Assembly (NCBI RefSeq): GCF_013266755.1
Contig: NZ_JABRWJ010000007.1
Coordinates: 62,001-126,000, forward strand
DNA length: 64,000 nt
Source: Pseudaquabacterium terrae
Lineage (GTDB): Bacteria > Pseudomonadota > Gammaproteobacteria > Burkholderiales > Burkholderiaceae_C
Direction of reading: 5' to 3'
Shown here: positions 16,340 to 31,910 of the stretch, in pieces
How positions within the stretch are numbered: the first letter of the stretch is position 1
Layout of the letters: each line of letters begins with the position of its first letter
Position numbers and translations under genes: made by a program
Notes under the pieces: model-generated
Told to the model about the DNA's origin: nothing
What the model saw: only the letters and a program-made list of their open reading frames with translations
The model's database searches: none

Positions 16340-16867
16340 ATGCAGCAGTCTCTTGCAAGCACGACAACGACACCGGAATCTGCCGAGGATGACGGGCCAC
16401 CTGGGCCGCGCCGGGCGCTGCGCCACCGCTCGACCGACCAGGCGCTGCAACTCGAAGCCCCGGCGCAGTTCGAGGCCATCGTCGACAGCCATTTGGCGCG
16501 CAGCCGGCGCCAGGGCGCGCCGCTCGTGGTGCTGCGCCTGACGGTGGACAGCGTGCAAGGCCCGGGCGGCTATGCCGCCGGGCACGAGGTGGAGCAGCGC
16601 GTGCTCGCCGAATGCGCGCACCGCCTGTGCAGTCGCGTGCGCTCGGTCGATCAGGTGGTGCGCATCGGCGGACGCGGCTTTGGGGTCGTGCTCGTCGGTG
16701 CCAACGAAGCCGCGGGGCGCGCGGTCAGCCTGCGCCTGGCGCTGGCCGGTGGCGGGCTCTACCGCCTGGGCAATCAGTTGCTCGACCTGCGCCTGCGCGT
16801 CGGCCATGCCGCCTTCCCCGAAGCCGGCGCCGGCGGCGCGGCCCTGGTGCGGGCGGCGACGTTCTGA
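16340..16867 (+). CDS. Degenerate GGDEF-domain protein
   Basis: This 175-residue protein has a GGDEF-like fold from about residue 35: FEAIVDSHLARSRRQGAPLVVLRL, then LAECAHRLCSRVRSVDQVVRIGGRGFGVVLVG. The signature is GGRGF instead of GG(D/E)EF, so the acidic metal-binding residues needed for cyclic di-GMP synthesis are lost; no RxxD inhibitory site is evident. The domain is also shorter than usual (about 140 residues). The ATG at 16340 is preferred over an upstream in-frame ATG at 16256. It is probably a non-catalytic binding or scaffold protein. It is divergent from the ECF sigma gene and convergent with the nucleoside hydrolase gene. Confidence 0.7.
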   Translation: MQQSLASTTTTPESAEDDGPPGPRRALRHRSTDQALQLEAPAQFEAIVDSHLARSRRQGAPLVVLRLTVDSVQGPGGYAAGHEVEQRVLAECAHRLCSRVRSVDQVVRIGGRGFGVVLVGANEAAGRAVSLRLALAGGGLYRLGNQLLDLRLRVGHAAFPEAGAGGAALVRAATF

Positions 16868-16870
16868 GCG

Positions 16871-17812
16871 TCAGGCGCCGAGCCGGCGCAGGGCTTGCGC
16901 CACCGTGTCGAGCAGCGCCGGCGTATTCGCCCGGGTAACGATGCGCGCGATCGCGCTGTCGCCCGCCGCCGCGGCGGCATCGTCGACCAGCAGGCGGCCC
17001 TCGCGCTCGCGGTCGCGCCACTCGACAGCCACGCGGTGTGCGGCGCTGTCGAACAGCTCCGGCGCGAACACCGCGGCCACCGGGCAGACGTCGTGCAGCA
17101 GCGGGTCGACGCCGCTGTACGCACGCAGCATCGCCTGCGCCGCCGCCGCTGCCGGGCCCGGCAGCGCGGCCAGCGAGGCAATCCAGTCATCGCTCATGCG
17201 GGCCTGTTCCGTGACGTCGAGGCCGAACAGCTGCAGCTGCGCGCCGGCGCTCAGCACGATCTGCGCCGCCAGCGGGTCGGCGTAGAAGTTGAACTCCGCA
17301 TGCGGATTGACGTTGCCGGGGCAGAAGGCCGCACCGCCCATCACGTCGATCTGCGCGGCGCGGCGCAGCAGGCCGGGTGAACGCAGCTCGGCGCAGGCCA
17401 GGTTGGTCAGCGGGCCGAGCGCGACGAGGCGCAGCGTGCCGGGTGCGGCCGCCAGCAGCAGCTCGACCAAGACGTCGATCGCGTGGCCCGCGGCGACGGC
17501 GCCCCGCAAGGGCAGCGCGACGCCGCCGAGGCCATCGGCGCCGTGCACCAGGTTGCTGCGCGGCTCGGCCTGGGTGAGTGGTCGTGCGCAGCCGGCATGC
17601 ACCGGCACCGCATCGGCGCCGGCCAGGTCGAGCACGCGGCGCGCATTCAGGCTGGTCTGCTCGACCGGCCGGTTGCCGGCGACGCAGGTCACCGCGCGGA
17701 TGTCCAACGCCGGCGATCCGGCGGCCAGCAGCAGCGCGAGCGCATCGTCGATGCCGGGATCGCAGTCGATCAGCAGGGGAAGAGGTGAGGTACTGGACAT
17801 CGCAGGGGCCAT
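16871..17812 (-). CDS. Nucleoside hydrolase (inosine-uridine preferring type)
   Basis: This enzyme hydrolyses the N-glycosidic bond of ribonucleosides to free base and ribose. The N-terminal calcium-binding motif LLIDCDPGIDDALALLLA (DxDPGxDD) is intact, as are VTCVAGNRPVEQTSLNARRVL, the ENPHAEFNFYADPLAA-like segment (here VNPHAEFNFYADPLAA) and the C-terminal HDVCPVAAVF active-site region. At 313 residues it is full length. An alternative start at 17800 would remove four residues. It is the last gene of the ten-gene operon, three bases after the ribokinase stop, and would supply ribose to the adjacent kinase. Confidence 0.93.
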   Translation of the reverse strand: MAPAMSSTSPLPLLIDCDPGIDDALALLLAAGSPALDIRAVTCVAGNRPVEQTSLNARRVLDLAGADAVPVHAGCARPLTQAEPRSNLVHGADGLGGVALPLRGAVAAGHAIDVLVELLLAAAPGTLRLVALGPLTNLACAELRSPGLLRRAAQIDVMGGAAFCPGNVNPHAEFNFYADPLAAQIVLSAGAQLQLFGLDVTEQARMSDDWIASLAALPGPAAAAAQAMLRAYSGVDPLLHDVCPVAAVFAPELFDSAAHRVAVEWRDREREGRLLVDDAAAAAGDSAIARIVTRANTPALLDTVAQALRRLGA

Positions 17813-17815
17813 CGG

Positions 17816-18736
17816 TCAATGAGTGGAAGAGCGCAGCGCGGCGCGGGTGGCATCGATCTCGCGCCGCAGCGGTTGCGCGGCCTGGGCGCCGCGCGCCGTG
17901 CAGGCGAGGCTGGCCGCGACGACCGCCCATTCGAGCGCAGCGGCGTCGTCGGCGCCCTGGCTGAGCGCCGCGGCGAAGACGCCGGCGCAAGTGTCGCCGG
18001 CGCCGGTGGTGTCGATCACGTCGAGCGCCGGCGCTGCGCGGCGATGGCGCACACCGTCGGCGTCGGCGATCAAGGCGCCGGCGCGGCCCAGCGTCAGCAG
18101 CACGCGCGCGCCGAGCGCCGCGGCGAGGCCGCGCGCCTGCACGGCGGGGTCGCCGTCGCCGAGGCCTTGTTGCAGGCAGGCGGCGCGCAGCTCGCCGGCG
18201 TTGACGATCAGCCAGTCGAACAGCCCATGCGGCAGCGGCGTGCCGGTCCAGGGCGCGGCGTTCAGCACCGTCCGGCAGCCGAGCCGGCGGGCGCGGCGCG
18301 CCAGCGCGAGGCACTCCGCGGCCGGCAGCTCGAGCTGCATCAGCAGGCTGTGGCAAGCCCCGAGCATCTCGTCGTCGACCCAGTCGGCACGCATCAGCGC
18401 ATTGGCGCCGGGCGCGACGACGATGCTGTTCTCGCCGCCGGCGGCGACGTTGATGCTGGCCAGCCCGGTCGTGCACCCAGGCAGCCAGCGCACGGCGCTC
18501 AGGTCGACGCCGGCGAGCTGCAGCCGTTCGAGCGCCGGTGCCGCGAAGCCGTCGTCGCCGACCGCGCCGATCAGCTGCGTCGGCACGCCGAAGCGTTGCG
18601 CCGCATGCGCCTGGTTCGCGCCCTTGCCGCCGGGGGACTGCAGCAGCGCGCCGCCGAGCACCGTCTCGCCGGGCCGCGGCAGCGCCGGGACCGCGATCGA
18701 CAGGTCGAGGTTGATCGAGCCGAAGACGAGCAACAT
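17816..18736 (-). CDS. Ribokinase-like PfkB family kinase
   Basis: This 306-residue sugar kinase has both PfkB signatures: the N-terminal GGKGANQAHAAQRFG (ribokinase-type) with NLDLSIAVPALPRPGETV, and the C-terminal DTTGAGDTCAGVFAAAL with the catalytic Asp and anion hole. The first signature is close to that of RbsK, so phosphorylation of the ribose released by the downstream hydrolase is the most economical role. It is adjacent without a gap to a second, more divergent PfkB kinase and is part of the nucleoside operon. Confidence 0.88.
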   Translation of the reverse strand: MLLVFGSINLDLSIAVPALPRPGETVLGGALLQSPGGKGANQAHAAQRFGVPTQLIGAVGDDGFAAPALERLQLAGVDLSAVRWLPGCTTGLASINVAAGGENSIVVAPGANALMRADWVDDEMLGACHSLLMQLELPAAECLALARRARRLGCRTVLNAAPWTGTPLPHGLFDWLIVNAGELRAACLQQGLGDGDPAVQARGLAAALGARVLLTLGRAGALIADADGVRHRRAAPALDVIDTTGAGDTCAGVFAAALSQGADDAAALEWAVVAASLACTARGAQAAQPLRREIDATRAALRSSTH

Positions 18737-19660: not shown

Positions 19661-20718
19661 GATGCGTTAGCGCGATCGGCCAAGACGCTCAGCTGCGCTG
19701 CCAGCTCGGTGAGGCGGTACTCCGCCTCGTTGACCGCCAGGAACTCGTCGCACAAGACCGCCGGCAGCGCGCGCGCTCCGCGCAGGCCGCCGCACAGCGC
19801 GCCGGCCATCGCGGCGATCGTGTCGGTGTCGTTGCCCATCGATGCGCCGATGCTCACGGTGCGCAAGGGATCGCCCTTCGCGTAAGCGAGCAGGCCGATC
19901 GCCGCCGCCACCGATTCGCAGGCCAGCACGCCGTTGCCGACCTCGGCCTCGGTGCGGCGCATGAACTCGAGGTCGTCACGCGCCTCCTCGGCGATGCGCA
20001 GCGCCATGTCCAGCCGCGCCGGCAGCCGCGGCCCGGCGACGGCGCGGGCGCGCTCGCGGCCGAGCCGTTCGCCGATCGCCGCGCCTTCGACGCAGGCGCC
20101 GATCACCGCGTCGAGCCGGTCGCTGACCAGCGCCTGCGCCGCGCCGGCGGCGATCGCGCAGGCGGCCGAGATCGCCACGTCGGTTTCGTGCGAGGGCAGG
20201 CAGGTGATGAAGGCCTGCTCGCAGGCGGCGCCGATGTCGCCCGGATGCACCCAGCCGCAGGGCGCGACGCGCATCGCCGCGCCGTTGGTGATGCCGGTCG
20301 TCGTCAGCTTGCGCAGCGAGCGTCCGATCGTGCCGACGCGCGCCAGGTCGCGCCCTTCGCGCAGCGCGGCGACGAAAAGCGCGGTACTCGGACCCATGAA
20401 GGTCGCCTTCGGGCTGTGCTCGGCCCAGTCGAGCAGGCAGCGCAGCCAGCCATCGGCGGCGAGCCGACCGCCGCCGGCGACCAGCGCGCGCGCCAGCCAC
20501 ACCAGCTGGCTGGTGTCGTCGGTGACCTCGCCGCGGCGGCCGCCCAGCGCGCCGGCGAAAGTGTCCTCGGTCGGCGCGACGAAGCGCGTGACGAGGCCGC
20601 CATGGCAGGCGCGGATCTCGTCGATCGTCCATTGTTCGGTCGGCGCGCCGAGCGCGTCGCCGATGCCGGCGAGGCACAGCGCGCCGAGGATGCGGTCATT
20701 CAAGTCGGGGTGGTTCAT
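19657..20718 (-). CDS. ADP-ribosylglycohydrolase family protein
   Basis: This 353-residue protein belongs to the ARH/DraG fold. The two metal-binding motifs are present: GEVTDDTSQLVWLA in the N-terminal half and MGNDTDTIAAMAGALCGG near the C-terminus; ILGALCLAGIGDALGAPTE is the typical N-terminus. Family members remove ADP-ribose from proteins or cleave related N-glycosidic bonds. Located in a nucleoside scavenging operon and coupled by four-base overlaps on both sides, it more likely acts on a small molecule (ADP-ribose derivative or nucleoside) than on a protein. That is inference. Confidence 0.88.
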   Translation of the reverse strand: MNHPDLNDRILGALCLAGIGDALGAPTEQWTIDEIRACHGGLVTRFVAPTEDTFAGALGGRRGEVTDDTSQLVWLARALVAGGGRLAADGWLRCLLDWAEHSPKATFMGPSTALFVAALREGRDLARVGTIGRSLRKLTTTGITNGAAMRVAPCGWVHPGDIGAACEQAFITCLPSHETDVAISAACAIAAGAAQALVSDRLDAVIGACVEGAAIGERLGRERARAVAGPRLPARLDMALRIAEEARDDLEFMRRTEAEVGNGVLACESVAAAIGLLAYAKGDPLRTVSIGASMGNDTDTIAAMAGALCGGLRGARALPAVLCDEFLAVNEAEYRLTELAAQLSVLADRANAS

Positions 20719-21731
20719 CGGGGGACTTCTGCGGAAGGCTCGGCGAGGCTGGATCGCCAACGCTTGAAAGACGCGGCCAGGCGGCGCCGCTCGCGCCGGC
20801 GCTCGTGCAACGCGAACAGCACCAGCGCGGCCAGCGTCGCCAGCGCCGGCAGCATCTGCACCGCCTGCGGCGGCAGCTCGAAGCGGCCGAGCTGCGTCGC
20901 CGCCACCATGCAAGCGCCGAACAGCAGCGCGGCCAGCAGCACGCCCAGCGGCGCGCGGCGACCGAGAAAGACGGCTGCCAGCGCCATGAAGCCGCGGCCC
21001 CCGGTCATGTCGGCCTGGAACAGCGTCAGGTGGCCCATGCCCAGGTACAGGCCGCCGAGGCCGGCGAGCAGGCCGGAGCCGGCCAGCGCGGCGTAGCGCA
21101 TCCCTTCGACGCCGATGCCGGCGGCGCGTGCGGCATCGGGGTGCTCGCCGACCGCGCGCAGCCGCAGGCCGAAGCGGGTGTGCATCAGCAGGCCGTGCAG
21201 CAGCGGCACCGCCAGCAGCGCGGCGATCACCAGCAGGTGGTGGCCGCGCCGGTCGTCGCCGTTGAGCAGCGCATCGAGCAGCGGCCAGACATCGAGCCCG
21301 GGCACGTGCAGCGCCGGCAGCGCCAGGCTGACCAACTGCGCGGTCGAGCCCTTGTCGCCCGTCCACAGCACCATCAGGAAGACGGTCGCGCCGGCGGCGA
21401 GCAGGTTGATGCCGATGCCGGCGACGATCAGGTCGGCGCCGAAGCGCAGGTGGCACACGCCGAGCAGCAGCGCCAGCGCGACCGAGGCCGAGAGCCCGAG
21501 CAGCGCGGCGAAGAGCAGCTGCGTGCCGATCGGCCAGGCCGGGAACCACGCCGGCGCCCAGACCGAGCCCATCACGCCGAAGAAGGCTGCCACGAGCATC
21601 AGGCCTTCGAGGCCGATGTTGATGACGCCGGCGCGCTCGCTCAGCATGCCGGCCAGCGCGGCGAACAGGATCGGCGCCGTCGCCCGCAGCAGCGCGGCGA
21701 AGAGGGCGGCGATGACGAGGCCGTCGATCAC
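20715..21731 (-). CDS. ABC transporter permease (nucleoside/BMP type, NupQ-like)
   Basis: This is an inner-membrane permease of 338 residues from the branched-chain/sugar-type BPD_transp_2 family. It has about nine hydrophobic segments, including PILFAALAGMLSERAGVINIGLEGLMLVAAF, the signature of the smaller permease of BMP-linked nucleoside importers (YufQ/NupQ). EHPDAARAAGIGVEGMRYAAL is the cytoplasmic loop that contacts the ATPase. It overlaps the next permease gene by four bases and the ARH gene by four bases. Confidence 0.92.
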   Translation of the reverse strand: MIDGLVIAALFAALLRATAPILFAALAGMLSERAGVINIGLEGLMLVAAFFGVMGSVWAPAWFPAWPIGTQLLFAALLGLSASVALALLLGVCHLRFGADLIVAGIGINLLAAGATVFLMVLWTGDKGSTAQLVSLALPALHVPGLDVWPLLDALLNGDDRRGHHLLVIAALLAVPLLHGLLMHTRFGLRLRAVGEHPDAARAAGIGVEGMRYAALAGSGLLAGLGGLYLGMGHLTLFQADMTGGRGFMALAAVFLGRRAPLGVLLAALLFGACMVAATQLGRFELPPQAVQMLPALATLAALVLFALHERRRERRRLAASFKRWRSSLAEPSAEVPR

Positions 21732-22804
21732 GGCGCTGCCTTGTGCGTCGCCTTGCGCGCCGGCAGCAGCCGCTCGCAGACCACCAGCAGCACCACCACC
21801 GCCTGCACCACCAGCACCATCTCGCGCGGTACGTCGGACGCACGCTCCATCGCCTGCGCGCCGCCTTCGAGCAGCGCGTAGCCGAAGGCGGCCAGCGGCA
21901 CGCGCTGCGGCTGGTTGCCGGCCAGCAGCGCGATCACCAGGCCCTGGTAGCCGATGCCCGGCGGCAGGTCGGCCGGCAGGCGGCCGAGCAGACCGTGCGA
22001 GACCTGCAGCCCGGCCAGACCCGCGAAGACGCCGCCGAGCGCCATCGACAACACGATCGTGCGAGCGACCGGCAGTCCGGCCTGGGCGGCGAAGGGCGCC
22101 GAATCACCGACGACGCGTATTTCGTAGCCTAGGGTCGTGCGCTGCAGCAGCCAGCCGGCGGCCAGCGGCGCCAGCACGATCAGCAGCAGCAGCACGCTCG
22201 CCTCGCTGCCGGGCAGCCGCGGCGGCAGTGCGGCAACGGCGAGCGCCGGCGTCGCCAGGAAGCCGGCGGCCGGGTCGTTGAAGCCCTGCGTGACGATCCA
22301 GCGGAACAGCTGCAGCGCGACGATGTTCAGCATCAGCGTGGTGACGATCTCGTTGGCGGCGAAGCGCGCCTTCAGCAGCCCCGGCAGCAGGCCCCAGGCG
22401 AAGCCGACCAATGCCGCGGCGGCGGCCGCGACCAGCCACGACAGCCCGCCCAGCGGCGGCAGCCACACGCCGACCGCCAGCGCCGCCAGCGCGGCCAGCA
22501 TCCATTGACCGTCTGCCCCCATCGAGAACTGGCGCGCGCGCAGGCCGATCAGCATCGCGAGGCCCAGCAGCGTCAGCGTCGTCGTCTGCTGCAGCACCGC
22601 ACCGAAGCGGCCGAGCCGGCGCCAGCTCAAGCCGCCATCGGCCGACCAGTGCGGCTCGGGCAGCGCGCCGGTCAGCAGTTGGCGCAGCGCGCTGACCGGC
22701 TCGGCGCTGACCAGGCACAGCAGGCCGAAGGCGAACAGCAGCGCGATGCCGATCGCCGCCAGTGGCCGCGTGGCGCCCGGTGCCGCCGAGGTCGCAAGGC
22801 TCAT
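21728..22804 (-). CDS. ABC transporter permease (nucleoside/BMP type, NupP-like)
   Basis: This is the partner permease of 358 residues. It has an N-terminal helix at about 14-32, then VLQQTTTLTLLGLAMLIGLRARQFSMGADGQW and ARFAANEIVTTLMLNIVALQL, both typical of the larger permease in BMP importers. The ATPase-coupling loop is RVVGDSAPFAAQAGLPVAR. The start at 22804 is preferred because it overlaps the ATPase stop by four bases (ATGA), the pattern seen through the whole operon; longer frames run into the ATPase gene antisense. Confidence 0.92.
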   Translation of the reverse strand: MSLATSAAPGATRPLAAIGIALLFAFGLLCLVSAEPVSALRQLLTGALPEPHWSADGGLSWRRLGRFGAVLQQTTTLTLLGLAMLIGLRARQFSMGADGQWMLAALAALAVGVWLPPLGGLSWLVAAAAAALVGFAWGLLPGLLKARFAANEIVTTLMLNIVALQLFRWIVTQGFNDPAAGFLATPALAVAALPPRLPGSEASVLLLLIVLAPLAAGWLLQRTTLGYEIRVVGDSAPFAAQAGLPVARTIVLSMALGGVFAGLAGLQVSHGLLGRLPADLPPGIGYQGLVIALLAGNQPQRVPLAAFGYALLEGGAQAMERASDVPREMVLVVQAVVVLLVVCERLLPARKATHKAAP

Positions 22805-24438
22805 GCCGGGTTTCCGTGCGGCGGCAAGCCGGGCGTGAACGGCGCACCGAGCCGCGCATTCACCGGTCCGCGCCCCAGCGCGCCGGTCATGCACAGCCCG
22901 AGCGTGCGCGGCGACACGGCATCGGCTGCGAAGTGCGCGACCAGCCGGCCTTCGAACAGCACGACCAGGCGGTCGGACAGCGCCAGCAGCTCGTCGAGGT
23001 CGGCGCTCAGCAGCAGCACCGCGGCGCCGGCATCGCGCAGCGCGAGCAGTGCGCGGTGCAGGCGCTGTGCGGCACCGACGTCGACGCCGCGGGTCGGCTG
23101 GTTGGCGACCAGGCAGCGCGGCTGCGCGGCGAGCTCGCGCGCCAGCACCAGCTTCTGCATGTTGCCGCCGCTCAGGCCATCGATCGGCGACGCGGCGCCC
23201 GGCGCCACGACACCGAAGTCCTGCAGCGTCTCGCGCGCCCGTTGCAACAGGGCGGGGCGGTCGAGCAGGCCACGCCGCGACATCGGCGGCGCACGGTAGT
23301 CGAGCGCCGCGAGGTTGTCGGCGATCGACAGCCCGGGCGCGACGCCGTCGTGCAGCCGGTCCTCGCCGATGCGCCCGAGGCCCTGGCGGCGCACGGCGCG
23401 CGGGTTGCCGGCCGCCAGCGGCGCGCCGTCGAGCATCAGCGCGCCGTGCGAGGGCCGGCGCAGGCCGCCCAGCACGTCGGCCAGCTCGGCCTGGCCATTG
23501 CCCTCGATGCCGGCAATGCCGAGGATCTCGCCGCCCGCGATGTCCAGCGTCACGCGGTCGAGCGCGGGCCGGCCGCTGGCGCGCAGCACGGTCAGCTCGC
23601 GCAGTGCCAGCCGTGCCGGCCGGCCGCGCGCATCGACGCGCGGCGCCTGCAGCGGCTCGATCTCGCGGCCCATCATCAGCGCCGCCAATGCCGGCGCCGA
23701 CATGCCGCGCGATACGCCCTGGCCCGCCACCCGGCCGGCGCGCAGCACGGTGAAGCGATCCGACACGTCGCGCACCTCGGCCATCTTGTGGCTGATCATC
23801 AGGATCGAGAGCCCTTCGCGCACCAGCGAGCGCAGCGAGTTGAACAAGGCCTCGGCCTCGACCGGCGTCAGCAGCGCCGTCGGCTCGTCGAGCAGCAGCA
23901 GCCGGGCGCGGCGGTGCAAGGCCTTGAGGATCGCGACGCGCTGCTGCTCGCCGGCCGACAGCTCGCCGACGCGCGAGCGCACCGGCACGCCCAGCGCATG
24001 GCGCTGCATCGCGTGCTCGGCCACCTGGATCGCCGCCGCGCGGTCGAACAGTGGCCCGCGTTGCGGCTCGGCGCCGAGCACCAGGTTCTCGGCCACCGTC
24101 AGCGACGGGACCAGCTGCAGGTGTTGCGGCACCAGGCCGATGCCGGCCGCCAGCGCCTCGGCCGGCGAGCGGAAGTCGCGCGGCCGCCCTTCGAACAGCA
24201 GGCTGCCGCTGTCGGGCCGCTCGAGGCCATACAGCAGCTTCAACAGCGATGTCTTGCCGGCACCGTTCTCGCCGAGCACCGCGTGGATCTCGCCGCGCTG
24301 CACGCTGATCGAGACGTCGTCGCAGGCCAGCACGCCGTTCGGGTAGCGCTTGCTCAGGCCGCGGGCGTCGAGCAGTGGACGCAGCGGTGCGGCGTCGGGG
24401 CTCGCCGGAGCAGCGGCGTCGGAGAGCGAAACGCTCAT
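22801..24438 (-). CDS. ABC transporter ATP-binding protein, tandem nucleotide-binding domains
   Basis: This 545-residue ATPase has two nucleotide-binding domains in one chain, as in sugar and nucleoside importers. The N-terminal domain has Walker A GENGAGKTSLLKLLYG, signature LSAGEQQRVAILKAL and Walker B LLLLDEPTALLTP. The C-terminal domain has the usual altered Walker A GIEGNGQAELA, signature LSGGNMQKLVLARELA and NQPTRGVDVGAAQ. Only the first site is expected to be fully catalytic, a normal feature of the family. It energises the two permeases encoded immediately downstream. Confidence 0.94.
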   Translation of the reverse strand: MSVSLSDAAAPASPDAAPLRPLLDARGLSKRYPNGVLACDDVSISVQRGEIHAVLGENGAGKTSLLKLLYGLERPDSGSLLFEGRPRDFRSPAEALAAGIGLVPQHLQLVPSLTVAENLVLGAEPQRGPLFDRAAAIQVAEHAMQRHALGVPVRSRVGELSAGEQQRVAILKALHRRARLLLLDEPTALLTPVEAEALFNSLRSLVREGLSILMISHKMAEVRDVSDRFTVLRAGRVAGQGVSRGMSAPALAALMMGREIEPLQAPRVDARGRPARLALRELTVLRASGRPALDRVTLDIAGGEILGIAGIEGNGQAELADVLGGLRRPSHGALMLDGAPLAAGNPRAVRRQGLGRIGEDRLHDGVAPGLSIADNLAALDYRAPPMSRRGLLDRPALLQRARETLQDFGVVAPGAASPIDGLSGGNMQKLVLARELAAQPRCLVANQPTRGVDVGAAQRLHRALLALRDAGAAVLLLSADLDELLALSDRLVVLFEGRLVAHFAADAVSPRTLGLCMTGALGRGPVNARLGAPFTPGLPPHGNPA

Positions 24439-25499
24439 CGGGCATCTCCTGATGCGATCGAAGCGGGATCGGCGGCCAGCCGGCGCGCGAGGGCGGCGAG
24501 CTCGGTAACTTCAGCGGCCGGCAGCTTGCCCCAAGCCGGCGCACTGGTGGCGAGCGAGACGCCGCCTTCGGCGAGCCCGAGCGAGCTGCGTTCGCCGAAG
24601 CGCAAGCGCCCGGCGCGGTGTTCGCGCAGCGCCTTCACGATCGCCACATCGACGTGCTTCATCACCGAGCTCAGGATCCATGCGGCGCGCTGTGGATGGC
24701 TGTCTCGGTACAGCAGGTGCTGGTCGGCATCGACGCCGATGACCCAGCGCCCGGCTTCGGCCGCGGCCTCGATCACGCCCTGGCCCGAGCCGCCGGCGAC
24801 CTGGAAGACGAGGCCGGCGCCCTGGGCGTACATCGCCTTGGCGATGTCCTTGGCGGTGGCCGGATCGCTGAACGAGTCGGCGTACTGGCGCAGCACGCGC
24901 AGGCGCGGCTCGGCGTCGCGGGCACCGGCGATGAAGCCGTCGATGAAATCGTCGACGACCGGGATCGGCAGGCCGCCGATCGCCCCTAACACCGGATCGG
25001 CGCGGCGCTCGCGCACGACGACGCGCGCCGCGAGGTGACCGGCGAGGAAGGCCGCTTCGCGCGGGCGGAAGACGATCGAGTGCACGTTGCCGCAGCGGCA
25101 GGCCAGCGGGTCGACGGCCGCGTCGAAGACGATGAAGCGGGCCTGCGGGAAACGCCCGGCGGTGCGCTGCACCACGCCGACCATCGCGAAGCTGCCGGCG
25201 ATGATCAGGTCGAAGTCACCGCTGTCGGCGAGGTCGGCGAAGGCCGCTTCCCAGCGCGTCGGGTCGCGGCCGCCTTCGACGATGCGCACGCGCAGGCCGA
25301 GCTCGTCGCGCGCCTGGCGCAGGCCGCGCGCGGCACCGTCGAAGAAGCTCTTGTCGCCGAGGGTGCCGTTGACGAACAGCGCGATGCGCGGCGAGTCGCC
25401 GGCGTTCTCCGTTCGATCGATGCGGCCGGTCCACGCGAAGATGAAGAGTGCCGCGACGATCGCCACCGTGATCAGGACCTGGCGCAGCAGCGGCTTCAT
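24435..25499 (-). CDS. BMP family nucleoside-binding protein (solute receptor)
   Basis: This 354-residue receptor belongs to the basic membrane protein (PnrA/BmpA) family, whose characterised members bind purine and pyrimidine nucleosides. IALFVNGTLGDKSFFDGAARGL, FIVFDAAVDPLACRCGNVHSIVFRPREAAFLAGHLAA and VFQVAGGSGQGVIEAAAEAGRWVIGVDADQ are family landmarks. It begins with a hydrophobic segment (VLITVAIVAALFIFAWTG) without a lipobox cysteine, so it is probably tethered by an uncleaved N-terminal helix or released by cleavage. That differs from the lipoprotein form usual in the family. It is encoded directly before its ATPase. Confidence 0.92.
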   Translation of the reverse strand: MKPLLRQVLITVAIVAALFIFAWTGRIDRTENAGDSPRIALFVNGTLGDKSFFDGAARGLRQARDELGLRVRIVEGGRDPTRWEAAFADLADSGDFDLIIAGSFAMVGVVQRTAGRFPQARFIVFDAAVDPLACRCGNVHSIVFRPREAAFLAGHLAARVVVRERRADPVLGAIGGLPIPVVDDFIDGFIAGARDAEPRLRVLRQYADSFSDPATAKDIAKAMYAQGAGLVFQVAGGSGQGVIEAAAEAGRWVIGVDADQHLLYRDSHPQRAAWILSSVMKHVDVAIVKALREHRAGRLRFGERSSLGLAEGGVSLATSAPAWGKLPAAEVTELAALARRLAADPASIASGDAR

Positions 25500-27091
25500 C
25501 GCGTGCCGGCCTCGAAATCGGCGGCGGCCAGCACGCCGCGGCGCTCGAACGCTGCGCGCAGCAGCGCGACATCGGTGCGGCCGGTGTCGACGTAGCCGGG
25601 GTGCCGCCGCAGGTCCGGGTAGCCGTCGCCGCCGGCGGCGACGAAGCTGCTGAGCGCGAGGCGGTAGCGGCGTGCGGGCTCGATCGGCGCGCCGCCGATG
25701 TGCAGCTCGTGCAGCGCCGCGCCGTCGAAGCGGAAGCGCGCACCGCTGAACTGCGGGTAGGCCCCGGAGCCGGGTGTCTTGCGCGCGGCGGCGAGCAGGT
25801 AGTCGGCCAGCTCGCGGCCGTCGAGCGTGACGATCACCAGCCGGTTGCCGAAGGGCAGCACCTGCAGCAGGTCACGCAGCCGCACCTCGCCCTCGCGCAG
25901 CGAGTCGCGGATGCCGCCCGAGCTGACCAGCGCGACGTCGGCCTCGGCGGCTTGCTGCATCAGCTGCGTGATCAAACGGCCGAGGTTGGTCGGGCGATGG
26001 CGCACGCTGGCGCGTTCACCGTCGAAATGGCCGGTGACGCGGCCGATCGGCACGGACAGCGTCGTGCGGCCGCTGTCGGCGAACGGGGTCAGCAGCGCGA
26101 GCATCTGCGGATCTTCCGCCACCGGCGGCGCACCGCGCAGGTTCACCGGCAGCAGCGCGTAGTTCAGCAGCTCGAGCCGGCCGTCGCGCCATTCGAAGTC
26201 GGCGCGGCCGATGAAGCGGCCGCGGTCGCCGGACTGCACGATCCAGGCGCCGTTCTGGCGATCGGGCCGGCAGGCCTCGCCCGGTCGGTGCGGCTCGGCG
26301 CGAGCGCCATCGTCACGCATGCAGACGGCGCTGTGGCTGTGGCCGCCGACGATCAGGTGAATGCCGCTCACTTCGCGCGCCAGCTCGACGTCGCCCGGCG
26401 CGCTGCTGCCGTGGCGGCCGTCCGGATAGTGGCCGAGGTGGCTCAGCACGATGATCACGTCGGCCTCGGACTTCAGCCGCGGCAGCCAGCGTTGCGCGCT
26501 CGCCGCCGGGCGCTCGAACTGCAGGCCCGGATGGCGCGCGCCGAGGTCCATGCGCGCGCTGTCCTCGGTCGTCAGGCCGAGCACCGCGATGCGCAGCGGC
26601 CCGCGCTGGAAGATCCGGTAGGGCTCGAAGGCCGGCTGCCCGCTGCGGCTGACGTTGGCGGCAAGCCAGGGAAAGCTCGACCATTCGCGGCGCTGGCGTT
26701 CGAGCACCGCCTGGGTCTTGTCGAACTCGTGGTTGCCGACCGCCATCGCATCGACGCCGAGTGCCGACATGCCGCGGAAATCCGGCTCGGCATCGAGCAG
26801 ATCGGATTCCGGCGTGCCGGTGTTGACGTCTCCGGCATCGAGCAGCAGCACCGCGCCGCCGTGCGCGGCGAGCTCGGCGCGCACGCCATCGACGATCGTC
26901 TTGCGCGCCGCCAGGCCATGCTCGCCGTCGGCGCTGCGCCAGAAACGGCCGTGGTGGTCGTTGGTGTGCAGGACGGTCAGGCGGACCGGCGGCGGGGCCT
27001 GCAGCGGAGTCTGCAGCGGGGTCTGCAGCGTGTGGCAGCCAGCGCCGAGCAGCGCGGCGACGGTGATCAGGACGAAGCGGCGGCCGATCAT
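25496..27091 (-). CDS. Periplasmic 5'-nucleotidase / metallophosphoesterase (UshA-like)
   Basis: This 531-residue protein has an N-terminal calcineurin-type phosphoesterase domain (LTVLHTNDHHGRFW; GDVNTGTPESDLL; AVGNHEFD; VLSHLGHY; VGGHSHS, all metal-binding motifs present). A C-terminal 5'-nucleotidase domain follows from about residue 335 (LVSSGGIRDSLREGEVRLRDLLQVLPFGNRLVIVTLDGREL). The N-terminus (LLGAGC, Cys19) looks like a lipoprotein signal. It would strip phosphate from nucleotides outside the inner membrane, generating nucleosides for the adjacent importer. It overlaps its neighbours by four bases on both sides. Confidence 0.93.
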   Translation of the reverse strand: MIGRRFVLITVAALLGAGCHTLQTPLQTPLQAPPPVRLTVLHTNDHHGRFWRSADGEHGLAARKTIVDGVRAELAAHGGAVLLLDAGDVNTGTPESDLLDAEPDFRGMSALGVDAMAVGNHEFDKTQAVLERQRREWSSFPWLAANVSRSGQPAFEPYRIFQRGPLRIAVLGLTTEDSARMDLGARHPGLQFERPAASAQRWLPRLKSEADVIIVLSHLGHYPDGRHGSSAPGDVELAREVSGIHLIVGGHSHSAVCMRDDGARAEPHRPGEACRPDRQNGAWIVQSGDRGRFIGRADFEWRDGRLELLNYALLPVNLRGAPPVAEDPQMLALLTPFADSGRTTLSVPIGRVTGHFDGERASVRHRPTNLGRLITQLMQQAAEADVALVSSGGIRDSLREGEVRLRDLLQVLPFGNRLVIVTLDGRELADYLLAAARKTPGSGAYPQFSGARFRFDGAALHELHIGGAPIEPARRYRLALSSFVAAGGDGYPDLRRHPGYVDTGRTDVALLRAAFERRGVLAAADFEAGTR

Positions 27092-28242
27092 CGTTCGCTC
27101 ACCGCGAACCAGCGCAGCATCGTCGGCTGGTGCGGCGCGAAGTTGTCGTCCGACACCAGCAGCAGGGTCGCGCGGCCGTCGGGCAGCCGCGGGCCCCAGG
27201 CAGCGGCCTCGATGTTCTCCGTCGCGCCGAGGTCGAGCAGCAGGCGCTTGCGCAGCGGCGTGAAGCGCGCGCCGGCCAGCGTCTCGAAGCCGCCGACGTC
27301 GTCGGCGCCGGCGAGCTCGGCGATGTAGAGCCGCGCCCGGAATCCGAACCGGCCATCCGCCACCTCGTGGCCGGCTCGCTCGATCACGAGCAAGGTCTTC
27401 GCATCGATCGGCAGCAGCTCGCTGACGCCGTTGTCAGCGCGGCCACCGCCACCGCTGCCGGTGCGCGGCAGCGCGTCGACCGGATAGGCGAACTGCCCCG
27501 CCGGCACGAGCGGCGCATCGGCCCTTGGCCGCTCGAAGCGGGTGAAGCGCAGCATCGCGCCGGCGCCGGTCGTCGGCAGCGGGCCGTCTTCCAGCAGCGG
27601 CGATTCGAGCGCCAGCCAGAGCGTGCGGCCATCGGGCGTGAATCCCAGGCCCTCGAACGAACGATTCGGCCGCGGCCCGCGGCGGCTGCCCGGCGGCGTG
27701 TTCAGGTTCGGCGGCAGCGATAACTCGCCAAGAAAGCGGCCGTCGGGTGCTGCGCGGCGAACGAACGGCGCCGCGCCATGGGCCGGATCACCTTCGCTGG
27801 CCCACAGCAGCTCGCCGCGGCAGGGGTCGAAGCGCAGCGCTTCGCCGTCGGCGCCGAAGCGCGCGAACGGCTGGCCGTCGGGGCGCTTCAGCGTCACGAC
27901 GCCGAGCACCTGCGGCGTGCCGGCGCCGTCGGCGGCAATCGGCAGCCGCAGCTCGTAGGCGCGCACCGGCGCATGCTCGCCGCGGTCGTCGCTCAACAAC
28001 CACCAGCGGCCGCTGGCCGGATCGAAGTCGGCCCCGGAAATGCCGCCCAGGTGCCGCGCGGGGCCATCAGCACTGCGCGGCAGCACCACCGCGCCGAGCG
28101 GCTGCAGCGCCTGGACCGCGCGCGGCCAGTGCGGCTGCGGTGCGCTGCAGGCGAGGGCGGCGGCAGCGCCCGCCAGGCGCAGCGTGACGCCAAAGCGCAC
28201 CAGGCGCGCGATCGCTCGACGGGCAGGGCGCGGGCAGGGCAT
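27088..28242 (-). CDS. Phytase-like esterase (esterase-like activity of phytase family), exported
   Basis: This 384-residue beta-propeller-like protein resembles the phytase-like domain family PF13449: LGGISGADFDPASGRWWLLSDDRGEHAPVRAYELRL, NRSFEGLGFTPDGRTLWLALES, NGVSELLPIDAKTLLVIERAG and ENIEAAAWGPRLPDGRATLLLVSDDNF. A signal-like N-terminus ending near AALACS (Cys32) suggests export, possibly as a lipoprotein. Substrates in this family are poorly known; in this operon a phosphomonoester or phosphodiester of a nucleotide is plausible. It starts 14 bases after the TonB receptor stop. Confidence 0.82.
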   Translation of the reverse strand: MPCPRPARRAIARLVRFGVTLRLAGAAAALACSAPQPHWPRAVQALQPLGAVVLPRSADGPARHLGGISGADFDPASGRWWLLSDDRGEHAPVRAYELRLPIAADGAGTPQVLGVVTLKRPDGQPFARFGADGEALRFDPCRGELLWASEGDPAHGAAPFVRRAAPDGRFLGELSLPPNLNTPPGSRRGPRPNRSFEGLGFTPDGRTLWLALESPLLEDGPLPTTGAGAMLRFTRFERPRADAPLVPAGQFAYPVDALPRTGSGGGGRADNGVSELLPIDAKTLLVIERAGHEVADGRFGFRARLYIAELAGADDVGGFETLAGARFTPLRKRLLLDLGATENIEAAAWGPRLPDGRATLLLVSDDNFAPHQPTMLRWFAVSER

Positions 28243-28256
28243 CTCGGCTCCGGCAT

Positions 28257-30719
28257 TCAGATCTCGGCGCGCAAGGTGACGAAGAAGGTGCGCGGGCCGC
28301 CCAGGAAGTATCGCCCCGAGGTCAGCGGGTTCGAGGTCGTCAGCTCCATGCCGACGCCGCCGAGGTAGCGCTTGTCGGTCAGGTTGTCGACGTTGAACGA
28401 CAGCTCGGCCTGCTTCAGCGGCCCGCTCCAGGCGCGCGGCAGCTTCCACTTCGCCGACAGGCCGACCAGCGTGTAGGCGGGCAGGTACTCACGCGCATAG
28501 GTCACGCCGCCGCTCGAATACTCGTGGTACGTGCCGGCGGCCTTGCCGACGTGCTTGGCGTTCAGCGTCACGCGGGTCGCGTCGCTGGGCTTGAGGGCGA
28601 GCTCGACGAAGGCGTTGTGCCGCGCGGCGCCGAGCACCGGGTCACCCTTGCGGATGCCTTCGAAGGCGGTGTCCTCGACGTAATAGGCGTCGTTGAACGC
28701 GTAGTTGGCGTACAGCGTCCACGGCCCCCATTGCGTGCGGCCGGTGACCTCGAAACCCTTCGAGCGGATGCCGCCCTGGTTCAGGAACGAGGTCGTCGCG
28801 TCGCGCCCGAAGATGTCGCCGTCGGGGTTGCCGTTCTGGATCGAGATGCGATTGCGGTAGTCGATCGAGTAGACCTGGAACGACGCGCCGTGCGGCCCGC
28901 GCGACCAGCGCAGGCCGGCGTCGACGTTGACCGAGGTTTCCGGCTCGACGCCCTTCTTCGAGCCGACCGCCGCGGTGCCTTCGAACACGCTGTCGGGCAG
29001 GGCGCTGAAGTTCTTCGAGGCGCTGGCAAAGACTTCCAGGTCGTCGTTGAAGCGGTACAGCGCGGCGACCTTCGGCAGCACGCCCGAGCTCACCGCCAGC
29101 GCGCGCTGGCCGTTGAACTCGACCGGCGAGCGGTAGGTCTCGCTGAAGCGCTGCGCGGTCAGTCCGAGGTCGAGCTCGGCGGCCTCGTCGAGCAGGCTGA
29201 TCTTGTCCTGCAGGTAGGCCATGGTCGTCGTCGAGGCGTACTGCCGGTCCTGCGTGGTCGAGTACAGCGCCGATGCCTCGAAGTCCGGTCCGGCCTTCGG
29301 GTCGGTTGCCAGGTACCAGTTGCGGCCCTTGGTGCGCTCGATCTTCTCGACCCAGCCGCCGGCGCGCATTGCATGGCGCTCGCCGAGCCGCCATTGCAGC
29401 TCGCCCAAAGCGCCATGGCGCCGCGTGTAGTAGATGCCAAGTCGCGCGGTGGCCTCGCGTGCGCCCCATGACGCCTGCGGATTCATCTGGAAGCGCGCGG
29501 CCGCCGGGCAGCCGGCGGCGGCCAGCGACGCGGCGGTCACGCCGGCCGGGAAGACCACGGCCGAGGTCGGGATCAGCGCGCCGCTGGCCGTGCGCGCGTA
29601 CTGGTTCGCATAACACTCCTGAACGGTGGCCACCGGGCGACCGCCCGGTGGCACCGCGCTGTACAACTGGCCGTCGACCGGCAGTTGCTTGTAGGGCACG
29701 TAGAAATTGCCCTCCCCCTCCTGGCGATGCAAATAGGGCTTCAGCTCGAGCCGCGTCGTGTCGCCGAGCTTGATCGAGGCGTTGAGGTGCGTGAACAGCT
29801 CGCGGCTGGCGATGCCGCGGGTCCGACGGTTGTTCTGGTCGATGGCCGGGTTGCCGGTCCAGGCATCCGTCAGCGCGTCGGTGTTCGGGTTCTTCTCGAA
29901 CACCGCCTTGAAGGTCGACGCGGCGCGCAATGCCAGCGCGTCGTAGTCGTTGTCGGCCATGTTGTTGTAGCTCGCGGTCCAGCGCAGCTTGTGGCCGCCG
30001 GCGAATTCGGTCAGCGTCTTCAGGTCGAAGTGATCACGCCGGCTGCGGCCCGAATGCTCGCCGGGCCAGGTCTCGACGTAGTTGTGCGAGGCGCTGAAGA
30101 AGGCGCGCGTGCCGAAGCCGATGTCGCCGGTGTCGTAGCGCACGAACTGGCGCTGGTAGTCGTAGCTGCCGGCGCTGAGCTCGGCCAGCGCGCCGGCTTG
30201 GCGCGCCGGGTCGCGCGTCTTGAATTCGATGAAGCCGCCGAGCGCCTGGTTGGACGGCGTGCCGATGTCGCCGGCGGTCTGCGAGACCTCGATCCAGAAC
30301 AGGTTCGACGGGTCGAGCAGCCGGTTCGGCATCGTGCCGCCGTTGGACAGCGTCGAGCCGTTCGGGATGCCGTCGATCGAGACGCCGATCTGTTCCTTGT
30401 TCAGCCCGCGCATCGACAGGCGCATCGAGAAGCTGCCGGTCAGTGAATCGCTGGAGCCGACCTGCAGGCCGGGCACGCGGGCGACGAGCTTCAGCGGGTC
30501 GAGGCCGGCGGGTTGGTCCTGGATCGTTTCGATGCTGACGACGCTGTTGGCACGCGCCTCGCCCTTGCCGAGGGCCTTCGCGGTGACGACGATGGTGGAG
30601 GTGGCGGCGTCGGCCGGTGCGTCGCTCGACGTGGCGGGTGGCGCGGCCGGTGCCTGGGCGCGGGCGCCGGCGCAGGCCAGCGAAGCGGCGGTGGCGAGCA
30701 GGCCGAGGGTCATTCGCAT
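28257..30719 (-). CDS. TonB-dependent outer membrane receptor
   Basis: This is an 820-residue receptor. The start at 30719 (MRMTLGLLATAASLACAGARAQA) has a GGAG ribosome site and a clean signal peptide; a frame opening at 30761 adds a non-signal extension. The plug domain spans about residues 40-170 (TIVVTAKALGKGEARANSVVSIETI, then RLSMRGLNKEQIGVSIDGIPNGS), followed by a barrel of many amphipathic strands. The C-terminus is FFVTLRAEI, ending in Ile rather than the usual aromatic. It is the promoter-proximal gene of the nucleoside operon and would import nucleotides or nucleic acid fragments. Substrate is inferred from context. Confidence 0.93.
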   Translation of the reverse strand: MRMTLGLLATAASLACAGARAQAPAAPPATSSDAPADAATSTIVVTAKALGKGEARANSVVSIETIQDQPAGLDPLKLVARVPGLQVGSSDSLTGSFSMRLSMRGLNKEQIGVSIDGIPNGSTLSNGGTMPNRLLDPSNLFWIEVSQTAGDIGTPSNQALGGFIEFKTRDPARQAGALAELSAGSYDYQRQFVRYDTGDIGFGTRAFFSASHNYVETWPGEHSGRSRRDHFDLKTLTEFAGGHKLRWTASYNNMADNDYDALALRAASTFKAVFEKNPNTDALTDAWTGNPAIDQNNRRTRGIASRELFTHLNASIKLGDTTRLELKPYLHRQEGEGNFYVPYKQLPVDGQLYSAVPPGGRPVATVQECYANQYARTASGALIPTSAVVFPAGVTAASLAAAGCPAAARFQMNPQASWGAREATARLGIYYTRRHGALGELQWRLGERHAMRAGGWVEKIERTKGRNWYLATDPKAGPDFEASALYSTTQDRQYASTTTMAYLQDKISLLDEAAELDLGLTAQRFSETYRSPVEFNGQRALAVSSGVLPKVAALYRFNDDLEVFASASKNFSALPDSVFEGTAAVGSKKGVEPETSVNVDAGLRWSRGPHGASFQVYSIDYRNRISIQNGNPDGDIFGRDATTSFLNQGGIRSKGFEVTGRTQWGPWTLYANYAFNDAYYVEDTAFEGIRKGDPVLGAARHNAFVELALKPSDATRVTLNAKHVGKAAGTYHEYSSGGVTYAREYLPAYTLVGLSAKWKLPRAWSGPLKQAELSFNVDNLTDKRYLGGVGMELTTSNPLTSGRYFLGGPRTFFVTLRAEI

Positions 30720-30746
30720 GGGGATCTCCGGTCCGGTGATCGGTTG

Positions 30747-30762
30747 AGTGAAACGTTTCACT
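30747..30762 (+). promoter_or_regulatory. Perfect palindromic operator between TonB receptor and LacI gene
   Basis: AGTGAAACGTTTCACT is a perfect 16-base palindrome with a central CG, the typical form of a LacI-family operator. It lies 28 bases upstream of the TonB receptor start and 60 bases upstream of the divergent lacI-type gene. Related half-sites follow: AGTTTCACT near 30777-30785 and TTTCACTGAAA at 30812-30822, the latter reaching the regulator's start codon. The arrangement suggests repression of the operon with autoregulation. Confidence 0.75.
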
Positions 30763-30821
30763 GAAGTCTAGGCCCAGTTTCACTCCTTGTCGAGCAGAAT
30801 TTCATCTAGACTTTCACTGAA

Positions 30822-31910
30822 ATGTCATCCCGCACTGCGCCGCCCAACGATCCGGCCGACGATGCCAGGCCGGCACGCGTCACGCTGAAACAGGTCGCCG
30901 AGGCGGCCGGCGTCTCGCTGGCCACCGCTTCTTACTCACTGAACAACGGCGGTTCGGTCGGGCAGGAGACCCGCGATCGGGTGATCGCCGTCGCCGAGCA
31001 GCTCGGTTACCGGCCGAACCTGGCGGCCAAGGCCATGCGCACCGGTCGCACCGGCACGCTGGGCTTCGTGCTGCCCGACCTGACGAACCCCTTCTTCCCG
31101 TTGCTCGCGCAGACGGTGATCCATGCCGCGCGCGGGGAGGGCTATGGCGTCTTCCTCACCGACAGCCAGGGTTCGAAGGAAGCCGAGGCCCAATCGATCG
31201 ATGCGCTGGTGCGGCGTGGCGTCGACGGCGTGATCTGGTTCCCGATCGACGACCTGCCGGACCGGCAGCCGAACCTCAACGGCGTGCCGACCGTGGTGCT
31301 CGATCGCAGCCTCGGCGGCTTCGATTGCGTGCTGGCGGATTTCGCCGCCGGCGGGCGGCTCGCCGCCGAATGCCTGCTGGCGGCCGGCCACCGGCGCATC
31401 GGGCTGATCACCGGGCCGCTGGCGGCCTCGAGTGCGCGCGAGCGCGCCGACGGGGCCCGTGAAACGATTCTTGCGCGGGGTGAGCTGGCCTGGGAAGTCG
31501 AAGCGGCGTTCTCGGCCGATCTGGAATCGAGTGTCGTCGGGCTCCTGAATCAACGCAGCGCGACCGCGGTGATTGCCGGCGCCGACCTGATCGCGATCGG
31601 CGTGATCCGTGCACTGCGTTCAGCGGGCCTGCGCGTGCCGCAGGACGTCTCGGTGATCGGCTTCGACAACATCCCGTGGACCGACCTGTGTGCGCCACCG
31701 CTGACGACGATCGAGCTGCCGGTGCCGGAAATGGGCGTCGAGGCGGTGCAGCAGCTGCTGCGCCGGTTGCGCACGCCGGAAGAGCCGCGGCGGCGCATCG
31801 TCTTCGATGTCGGGCTGGTCGAGCGGGCATCCGTCGCGGCGCCGTCGACCGATGCCGACAAGCCGCCCGCGAAGGCGCGGCGCCGGTGGTTCCGCGCCGG
31901 CCAGGGGTGA
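30822..31910 (+). CDS. LacI family transcriptional regulator (nucleoside operon)
   Basis: This 362-residue regulator has a LacI helix-turn-helix after a short polar extension (VTLKQVAEAAGVSLATASYSLNNGGSVGQETRDRVIAVAEQLGYRPN), followed by the hinge NLAAKAMRTGRTGTLGFVLPDL and a periplasmic-binding-like effector domain ending around residue 335. It is divergent from the ten-gene scavenging operon, with a matching palindrome in the shared 102-base gap. The effector is probably a nucleoside or a breakdown product, by analogy with other LacI nucleoside regulators; this is inference. Confidence 0.92.
   Translation: MSSRTAPPNDPADDARPARVTLKQVAEAAGVSLATASYSLNNGGSVGQETRDRVIAVAEQLGYRPNLAAKAMRTGRTGTLGFVLPDLTNPFFPLLAQTVIHAARGEGYGVFLTDSQGSKEAEAQSIDALVRRGVDGVIWFPIDDLPDRQPNLNGVPTVVLDRSLGGFDCVLADFAAGGRLAAECLLAAGHRRIGLITGPLAASSARERADGARETILARGELAWEVEAAFSADLESSVVGLLNQRSATAVIAGADLIAIGVIRALRSAGLRVPQDVSVIGFDNIPWTDLCAPPLTTIELPVPEMGVEAVQQLLRRLRTPEEPRRRIVFDVGLVERASVAAPSTDADKPPAKARRRWFRAGQG

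What the first reader, a model, noticed from the sequence alone, without database searches (positions are those of the whole stretch)
16871..31910. Ten-gene two-membrane nucleotide/nucleoside scavenging operon under one LacI regulator
Seen: ten same-strand genes from a TonB receptor (30719) to a nucleoside hydrolase (16871). Seven of the nine junctions are four-base overlaps or direct abutments, and the other two are gaps of 3 and 14 bases. The order TonB receptor, phytase-like esterase, 5'-nucleotidase, BMP receptor, tandem ATPase, two permeases, ADP-ribosylglycohydrolase, two PfkB kinases, nucleoside hydrolase reads as a route from outer membrane to sugar phosphate. Known: BMP importers carry nucleosides, and UshA-like enzymes dephosphorylate nucleotides. 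Inference: the whole is a dedicated uptake-and-strip machine for a nucleotide or nucleotide conjugate, more complete than typical nucleoside operons, and the specific substrate may be new.
Basis: partly seen in the sequence, partly recalled or inferred. Interest (0 to 1): 0.72.

Follow-up and report, generated by a model that had tools for sequence, protein, structure and literature searches.

The report
Nucleotide scavenging operon with ribosyl-hydrolase pair
A tightly packed set of eleven bacterial genes looks like a complete route for catching nucleotides outside the cell, stripping and importing them and feeding their ribose into metabolism, and it contains an enzyme pair of unknown purpose whose relatives also occur in Escherichia coli.

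Summary
The operon is real but has eleven genes, not ten (16871-30719, minus strand), facing a LacI gene across a perfect 16-base palindrome. Families are as read: TonB receptor, phytase-like esterase, UshA-like nucleotidase, BMP receptor, ATPase, two permeases, ADP-ribosylglycohydrolase (ARG), two PfkB kinases, nucleoside hydrolase. The set is conserved: 15 loci of the same order, this one included, share permeases, ARG and nucleoside hydrolase. No other held locus shows the LacI; the 12 whose regulator gene is held have a GntR and the operator TGGTACGTACCA. In relatives that operator also precedes ExbD-TonB-receptor-ExbB units and, in one, a receptor-adenosine deaminase-transaldolase unit, pointing to adenosine nucleotides in and ribose 5-phosphate out. 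The kinases differ: one groups with ribokinase, the other with ARG-linked kinases of Yersinia and E. coli, with moderate support. Best reading: an inducible nucleotide uptake-and-strip operon in which ARG and its partner kinase open a second riboside. That substrate is unknown; an ADP-ribosyl conjugate is possible, not shown. New variant of a known kind.

The parts
30822..31910 (+). LacI-family regulator (RbsR/UriR/PurR-like, below the cut-off of each of the 19 models matched)
   Evidence: no match in the held stretches of the other 14 loci
30747..30762 (.). perfect 16-base palindrome AGTGAAACGTTTCACT, presumed LacI operator
   Evidence: role inferred
30812..30822 (.). short inverted repeat TTTCACTGAAA at the lacI start, possible second operator
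   Evidence: inference
28257..30719 (-). TonB-dependent outer-membrane receptor (820 aa)
   Evidence: 61-64% identical receptors in five relatives
27088..28242 (-). phytase-like esterase, lipoprotein-like signal by eye (384 aa)
   Evidence: PF13449, 252 bits; in 14 of 15 loci of the order plus the Yersinia and E. coli loci
25496..27091 (-). UshA-like 5'-nucleotidase/UDP-sugar hydrolase, lipobox-like LLGAGC by eye (531 aa)
   Evidence: (UshA model 594 bits, cut-off 600)
24435..25499 (-). BMP/PnrA-type substrate-binding protein (354 aa)
22801..24438 (-). tandem ABC ATPase (545 aa)
21728..22804 (-). ABC permease 1
   Evidence: (PF02653), start
20715..21731 (-). ABC permease 2
   Evidence: PF02653
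19657..20718 (-). ADP-ribosylglycohydrolase-family hydrolase (ARG, 353 aa), metal-site motifs kept
   Evidence: only PF03747 match of the genome
18737..19660 (-). PfkB kinase K1, probable partner kinase of ARG
17816..18736 (-). PfkB kinase K2, ribokinase-like
16871..17812 (-). inosine/uridine-type nucleoside hydrolase (313 aa)
   Evidence: only PF01156 match of the genome

Best explanation
An inducible operon for eating nucleotides or nucleotide conjugates. Inferred route: the TonB receptor admits the molecule; the phytase-like esterase and the UshA-like enzyme remove phosphates in the periplasm; the BMP-type ABC importer takes up nucleosides/ribosides. In the cytoplasm two branches meet at ribose 5-phosphate: (i) nucleoside hydrolase plus ribokinase-like K2 for ordinary nucleosides; (ii) ARG plus its partner kinase K1, most likely for a second riboside. 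LacI holds the unit off until an inducer (ribose or a nucleoside-like compound) appears. Shown: gene families, order, conservation, operators in relatives, kinase grouping. Inferred: enzyme activities, order of steps, inducer, substrate. The confidence below is for the general route; the first three rivals divide up what branch ii does within it.
For: Families and packing. Block in 15 loci of the order: both permeases, ARG and nucleoside hydrolase in 15 of 15 (ARG by construction), BMP and ATPase in 13 of 15 (the other two lie on cut contigs), phytase-like in 14 of 15. GntR with at least one exact operator in 12 of 12 loci where the GntR gene is held; operators also precede ExbD-TonB-receptor-ExbB units, a phytase-like gene, and a receptor-adenosine deaminase-transaldolase unit. 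BMP residues at the nucleoside site are kept: F210, D257 and K281 in 13 of 13 loci, F52 in 12 of 13 (mapped by me through the alignment; the paper gives a stacking Phe pair, the roles of F52, D257 and K281 are recalled). K2 groups with E. coli RbsK (support 80/88), K1 with the ARG-linked kinases of Yersinia and E. coli (89/99). The only ARG and only nucleoside hydrolase of the genome lie here.
Against: No activity is shown. Nucleoside hydrolase, ARG, K1, K2 and BMP protein all score below the curated cut-off of each model they match. UshA is seen in only 2 of 15 loci. The TonB receptor is not the same protein in all loci (20-64% identity to this one). K1 is not seen in 2 of 15 loci and K2 in 9 of 15; in G1374 no kinase lies beside ARG (the nearest is 9 kb away) and in G1397 only K2 does, so the two-branch split is not universal. 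Neither kinase grouping is starred in the tree. N44 of the BMP protein, invariant in 13 loci, aligns with Ser in PnrA and Asp in BmpD, so base specificity may differ.
Confidence: 0.7

Rival explanations
1. Plain purine/pyrimidine nucleoside catabolism: ARG and K1 are just a second set of nucleoside hydrolase and ribokinase for ordinary nucleosides, and there is no special conjugate.
For: Nucleoside hydrolase, ribokinase-like K2, BMP importer, and adenosine deaminase in one relative already explain growth on nucleosides.
Against: ARG stays with a kinase where the annotated stretch shows no nucleoside hydrolase or BMP importer (Yersinia, E. coli). Of 19 lower-scoring, YegU-like ARG loci 18 have a PfkB within 1.5 kb, against 0 of 8 loci with weak ARH-type matches (the 19 come from few genera and are not independent). 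K1 is apart from K2 in the tree.
Confidence: 0.35
2. The target is an ADP-ribosyl compound or NAD-like dinucleotide: periplasmic enzymes split the pyrophosphate to adenosine plus ribosyl-X; adenosine goes to the nucleoside hydrolase, ribosyl-X to K1 and ARG.
For: A profile of ARG and relatives aligns over most of its length with ADP-ribosylhydrolase ARH3, with the Glu, TDD and DTD motifs kept. Adenosine deaminase and a PRAI-like protein sit at the same operator in one relative. UshA-type enzymes open pyrophosphates (established knowledge).
Against: UshA is not seen in the held stretches of 13 of 15 loci (2 of them cut contigs; among these 13 only the G266 genome was searched whole, with no match), and no other pyrophosphatase was recognised. 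The residues before the shared NG motif differ from ARH3 (that they touch adenine is recalled). The Lactiplantibacillus ARG locus near NAD-salvage genes is a distant relative (31-32%). Nothing measures ADP-ribose.
Confidence: 0.2
3. ARG plus K1 salvage a phosphoribosyl-amine type compound (aminoimidazole riboside-like), phosphorylated first and split afterwards.
For: A Salmonella kinase (STM4066) in an operon with an ARG (STM4067) has aminoimidazole riboside kinase activity (PMC3161100, passages). A related layout on a plasmid carries that annotation. A PRAI-like gene lies inside the operon of one locus and beside operators in two more; SIS-domain proteins lie between ARG and kinase in Yersinia and E. 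coli.
Against: The plasmid kinase annotated as aminoimidazole riboside kinase is not in the K1 group, though it is a long branch of unsure place. The three PRAI-like proteins have Thr where, by recall, TrpF has its catalytic Cys. PRAI-like genes are seen in 3 of 15 loci and SIS genes in 0 of 15.
Confidence: 0.25
4. A chance neighbourhood or two adjacent operons without a common function.
For: In Methylibium the receptor-esterase-UshA unit and the importer-enzyme unit are separate, divergent units.
Against: Two copies of one operator lie in the region those two units share and the set recurs in 15 loci.
Confidence: 0.03

Closest known systems
E. coli yegTUV with regulator YegW/GgaR
   Same: ARG next to a PfkB-type kinase, a nucleoside-symporter-family transporter and a single-target GntR repressor (PMC10819704, passages)
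   Different: No outer-membrane receptor, periplasmic phosphatase, BMP importer or nucleoside hydrolase annotated beside it; ARG 34% identical; linked by its authors to ADP-glucose and glycogen
Salmonella STM4065-4066-4067 operon (aminoimidazole riboside kinase plus ARG)
   Same: kinase plus ARG; the kinase acts on a riboside (PMC3161100, passages)
   Different: the related plasmid kinase falls outside the K1 group (long branch); no receptor, BMP importer or nucleoside hydrolase annotated in the 10.9 kb seen
E. coli ygiN-parE and Yersinia frederiksenii plasmid clusters (GPH symporter, GntR, ARG, SIS, PfkB, phytase-like, KdgM porin; UshA in Yersinia)
   Same: closest ARG I found outside the order (46-48%), kinase grouped with K1, same phytase-like family
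   Different: porin instead of TonB receptor, symporter instead of ABC importer, SIS protein, no nucleoside hydrolase annotated; function not found in print in my searches
BMP/PnrA-type nucleoside ABC importers (TmpC/PnrA, BmpD)
   Same: substrate-binding protein family, tandem ATPase, two permeases (PMC7093131, passages)
   Different: embedded in an operon with outer-membrane receptor and catabolic enzymes; altered loop
Bacteroides ribose utilization systems (rus operons, Glowacki 2020)
   Same: two ribokinase-type genes, nucleoside hydrolase, TonB-linked receptor (recalled; paper not held)
   Different: SusCD-type receptor and different phylum; comparison rests on recall only

Membership tests
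BMP/PnrA nucleoside ABC importer | PF02608 receptor with two PF02653 permeases and tandem ATPase | tested here: met
   all over the curated cut-offs
BMP/PnrA nucleoside ABC importer | nucleoside-stacking Phe pair and ribose-holding Asp/Lys | tested here: met
   F52 (12 of 13), F210, D257, K281 (13 of 13); mapping by my own counting, roles of F52, D257 and K281 recalled
BMP/PnrA nucleoside ABC importer | measured nucleoside binding | not testable with these tools
   needs protein
UshA (NCBIfam equivalog NF007109) | score over the curated cut-off of 600 bits | tested here: not met
   594 bits; it may work like a UshA by its domains but stays just under the cut-off
ADP-ribosylglycohydrolase family PF03747 | curated cut-off and metal-site motifs | tested here: met
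   166.8 bits vs 26.2; E28, T66-D67-D68, D297-T298-D299 present in the window protein (role as metal ligands recalled)
ADP-ribosylhydrolase (DraG, Tri1 equivalogs) | score over the curated cut-off | tested here: not met
   DraG model 33.2 of 337.05 bits, Tri1 20.3 of 490
ADP-ribosylhydrolase by function | activity on ADP-ribosyl groups | not testable with these tools
   needs protein
YegU-YegV type ARG-PfkB pair | ARG with a PfkB kinase in the same gene run | tested here: met
   but the kinase falls outside the YegV group and ARG is only 34% identical to YegU (no ARG tree was built)
Ribokinase (TIGR02152 equivalog) | score over 299.65 bits | tested here: not met
   K2 214.8, K1 113.9; K2 still groups with RbsK in the tree, support 80/88, not starred
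Nucleoside hydrolase IUNH family PF01156 | curated cut-off | tested here: met
   263.8 bits vs 34.2; the cut-offs of all four NCBIfam models matched are missed
Bacteroides ribose utilization system | SusC/SusD receptor pair (recalled) | tested here: not met
   receptor matches no SusC model at E 0.001 and none of the eleven proteins matches a SusD family

The most novel reading that the evidence does not exclude
The operon is a scavenging system for ADP-ribosyl or other dinucleotide ribose conjugates, in which an ADP-ribosylhydrolase-fold enzyme has become a catabolic riboside hydrolase working with its own kinase on a phosphorylated riboside. The unexplained pairs of the same kind in E. coli (yegUV and the ygiN-parE island) would then be members of one widespread riboside-salvage pathway.
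Probability: 0.2. Interest if true: 0.75.

Novelty: new variant of a known kind. Interest (0 to 1): 0.5.

Why it matters
The ARG-PfkB pair is unexplained even in E. coli K-12 (PMC10819704, passages). Here it sits in a conserved gene set whose other members are recognisable nucleotide-uptake and ribose-handling functions, with adenosine deaminase and transaldolase added in one relative. That narrows the pair's job towards opening a riboside and makes a direct enzyme test possible. The system would also be a TonB-driven nucleotide importer with what looks like its own energiser in six relatives.

Tried and rejected
Structure prediction of ARG from three sequences gave mean pLDDT 44.6 and was not used; no fold search was run. 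The genome-contig scan with ARG found two named loci; it used only two peptide patterns. ARG searches: order 3 of 399 genomes at 1e-20, of which two (own and G266) are close and G208 is distant; class 1 of 369, the window's own; phylum 21 of 398 at 1e-40, the other 20 scoring at most 201 bits against 615 for the window. I call those YegU-like by score and by their kinase neighbour, not by a tree. Only 5-6 candidates per genome were scored, so misses are possible. Of the 10 genomes with a match, 8 score at most 27.9 bits and were treated as other ARH proteins. The kinase tree took 6 of the 18 kinases found. The phytase-like protein has no PDB relative by sequence at E 0.01. All ten literature searches gave no description of this operon or of a TGGTACGTACCA regulon in their listings; the operator itself was not a search term, and only open-licence PubMed Central papers are held. 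Of the papers named I saw passages only (PMC10819704, PMC3161100, PMC7093131, PMC4052901, which names LacI regulators of nucleoside use such as UriR); Glowacki 2020 is recalled, not seen. Lateral acquisition was considered: close ARG is patchy (2 of 149 genomes, own included; 3 of 319 in the family, own included). The GC of the operon is 0.732 against 0.697 for the window; no genome-wide comparison was made, so this decides nothing.
Full report
Check of the observation. The cluster is present as described, with one correction: eleven genes and ten junctions, not ten and nine. Junctions are seven four-base overlaps, one abutment, and gaps of 14 and 3 bases. The LacI gene (30822-31910) is divergent, and between it and the receptor lies AGTGAAACGTTTCACT (30747-30762). 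The 12-base core of this palindrome has one site in 8.04 Mb with at most one mismatch, against 3 for the reversed control, so the regulator looks local, though the count alone proves nothing.

What the parts say. The substrate-binding protein is a PnrA/BmpD relative. Across 13 loci F210, D257 and K281 are invariant and F52 is kept in 12. PMC7093131 (passages) describes a stacking pair of Phe in PnrA and BmpD; I mapped the positions by counting along the alignment, and the roles of F52, D257 and K281 are recalled. N44 is invariant in the 13 loci and aligns with Ser in PnrA and Asp in BmpD, so the base preference may differ. UshA scores 594 bits, just under its cut-off of 600. ARG keeps motifs that in ARH proteins hold the metal (recalled) but scores far below the DraG and Tri1 equivalogs. 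ARG and the nucleoside hydrolase are the only matches of their families in the genome; the genome has ten PfkB matches, one of them weak, and five BMP matches.

Conservation. In the 149 genomes, own included, only one other (G085, 66% identity) has a strong ARG match; one search names a contig of the same length and match as Methylibium rhizosphaerae. Its locus has all eleven genes as two divergent units with a GntR-UTRA regulator in place of LacI. Searching the families of the window and of G266 gave 3 of 319 and 12 of 343 genomes with close ARG, own and G266 included. I mapped 15 loci of the same order (Burkholderiales by the names), the window among them; one, G1242, has a contig of the same length as L025 and the identical PRAI-like gene. 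Two, G1242 and G1468, lie on cut contigs. Found in the held stretches: both permeases, ARG and nucleoside hydrolase 15 of 15 (ARG by construction); BMP and ATPase 13 of 15, the two without being the cut contigs; phytase-like 14 of 15; K1 13 of 15; K2 6 of 15; UshA 2 of 15; LacI 1 of 15; GntR 12 of 15, the window and the two cut contigs being without. K1 and K2 are told apart by best match. In G1374 no kinase lies beside ARG (the nearest is 9 kb away), and in G1397 only K2 does. A receptor 61-64% identical to the window's is present in five other loci; seven have a distant one, of which G085's is 30% identical. The G266 genome has no UshA match at all. The block is therefore conserved, patchy, and modular at the outer membrane and in regulation.

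Operators and the substrate. The exact 12-mer TGGTACGTACCA occurs at least once in all 12 loci that hold the GntR gene, and not in the window even with one mismatch. In Methylibium two copies lie in the region shared by the two divergent units. In G266 one precedes ExbD, TonB, receptor and ExbB, a set found in 6 of 15 loci by similarity; five of the six have an exact site ahead of ExbD and the sixth (G1474) only sites with one mismatch. In G1353 one lies between a PRAI-like gene and a unit of receptor, adenosine deaminase (548 bits, cut-off 419) and transaldolase (418.5, cut-off 396.2). In G1731 one precedes the phytase-like gene. Adenosine deaminase and transaldolase point to adenosine coming in and ribose 5-phosphate going on to the pentose phosphate pathway; this is inference from 1 of 15 loci.

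Two kinases, two branches. In a tree of 24 kinases K2 groups with E. coli RbsK (80/88) and K1 with the kinases beside ARG in Yersinia and E. coli (89/99), away from the YegV group. Neither group is starred, some branches are long, eight forks are open, and only 6 of the 18 kinases were put in, so this is moderate evidence. Separately, 18 of 19 YegU-like loci have a PfkB gene within 1.5 kb, against 0 of 8 loci with weak ARH-type matches; the 19 loci come from few genera and are not independent. The 19th (G208) has a kinase behind a transporter gene.

Relatives outside the order. A Yersinia frederiksenii plasmid has GPH symporter, KdgM porin, GntR, ARG (48%), SIS protein, PfkB, phytase-like and UshA. 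A similar chromosomal cluster without UshA lies between ygiN and parE in E. coli M8, and its ARG gene is in 404 of 5426 complete E. coli genomes. In the loci held, many of them short, the phytase-like family was found only beside close ARG genes. More distant ARG-kinase pairs include yegTUV, a Salmonella plasmid, Mesorhizobium, Paracoccus and Lactiplantibacillus. The symporter of the Salmonella plasmid is 61% identical to that of Yersinia, which links the two kinds of ARG operon. Of the papers I saw, one gives an activity for a kinase beside an ARG, on aminoimidazole riboside (PMC3161100, passages), and another calls the yegTUV functions unknown (PMC10819704, passages).

Mechanism. The best-supported model is uptake by the TonB receptor, dephosphorylation in the periplasm, import by the BMP system, and two cytoplasmic riboside-opening branches that end in ribose 5-phosphate. 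The general model is likely (0.7). What the second branch opens is undecided: ordinary nucleosides, an aminoimidazole-like riboside and an ADP-ribosyl or dinucleotide conjugate all remain. The PRAI-like and SIS proteins would fit a phosphoribosyl-amine intermediate, but the PRAI-like proteins lack the expected Cys (the role of that Cys is recalled), and PRAI-like genes are seen in 3 of 15 loci and SIS genes in none of the 15.

Verdict. A real, conserved arrangement built from known kinds of parts; no description of it turned up in my searches. It is more interesting for what it says about the ARG-kinase pair than for nucleotide uptake itself.

Noticed in passing
L039:4593-11954 (E. coli M8), also L033:4736-13792: E. 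coli island between ygiN and parE: GPH-type symporter, GntR, ARG, SIS, PfkB, phytase-like, KdgM porin; its ARG is in 404 of 5426 complete E. coli genomes. Function not found in print.
   Followed up: partly
L025:2451-3206; G1353 (L098) and G1374 (L102) loci: Divergent PRAI (TrpF)-like gene inside or beside the gene set in 3 of 15 loci, with Thr at the position where TrpF has its Cys by recall.
   Followed up: partly
G000:C53:79000-98700 (L020, L073): A second BMP system in the same genome near a cytidine-deaminase-like ORF and two further nucleotidase genes, one 54% identical to the window's UshA-like gene.
   Followed up: partly
L029:5125-9659: ExbD, TonB, receptor and ExbB behind the GntR operator: an energiser that looks dedicated to this uptake system.
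   Followed up: partly
window 12871-16170, minus strand: Serine/threonine protein kinase with TPR repeats downstream of the operon, about 700 bases away, with an ORF without Pfam match (16139-16807) between; no link seen.
   Followed up: no
window 32058-33137, minus strand: Asparaginase gene next to the LacI gene.
   Followed up: no
L097:4993-10100 (G1353): A further TonB receptor, a GPH-type symporter and a GH43 glycosidase follow the operon in this relative.
   Followed up: no
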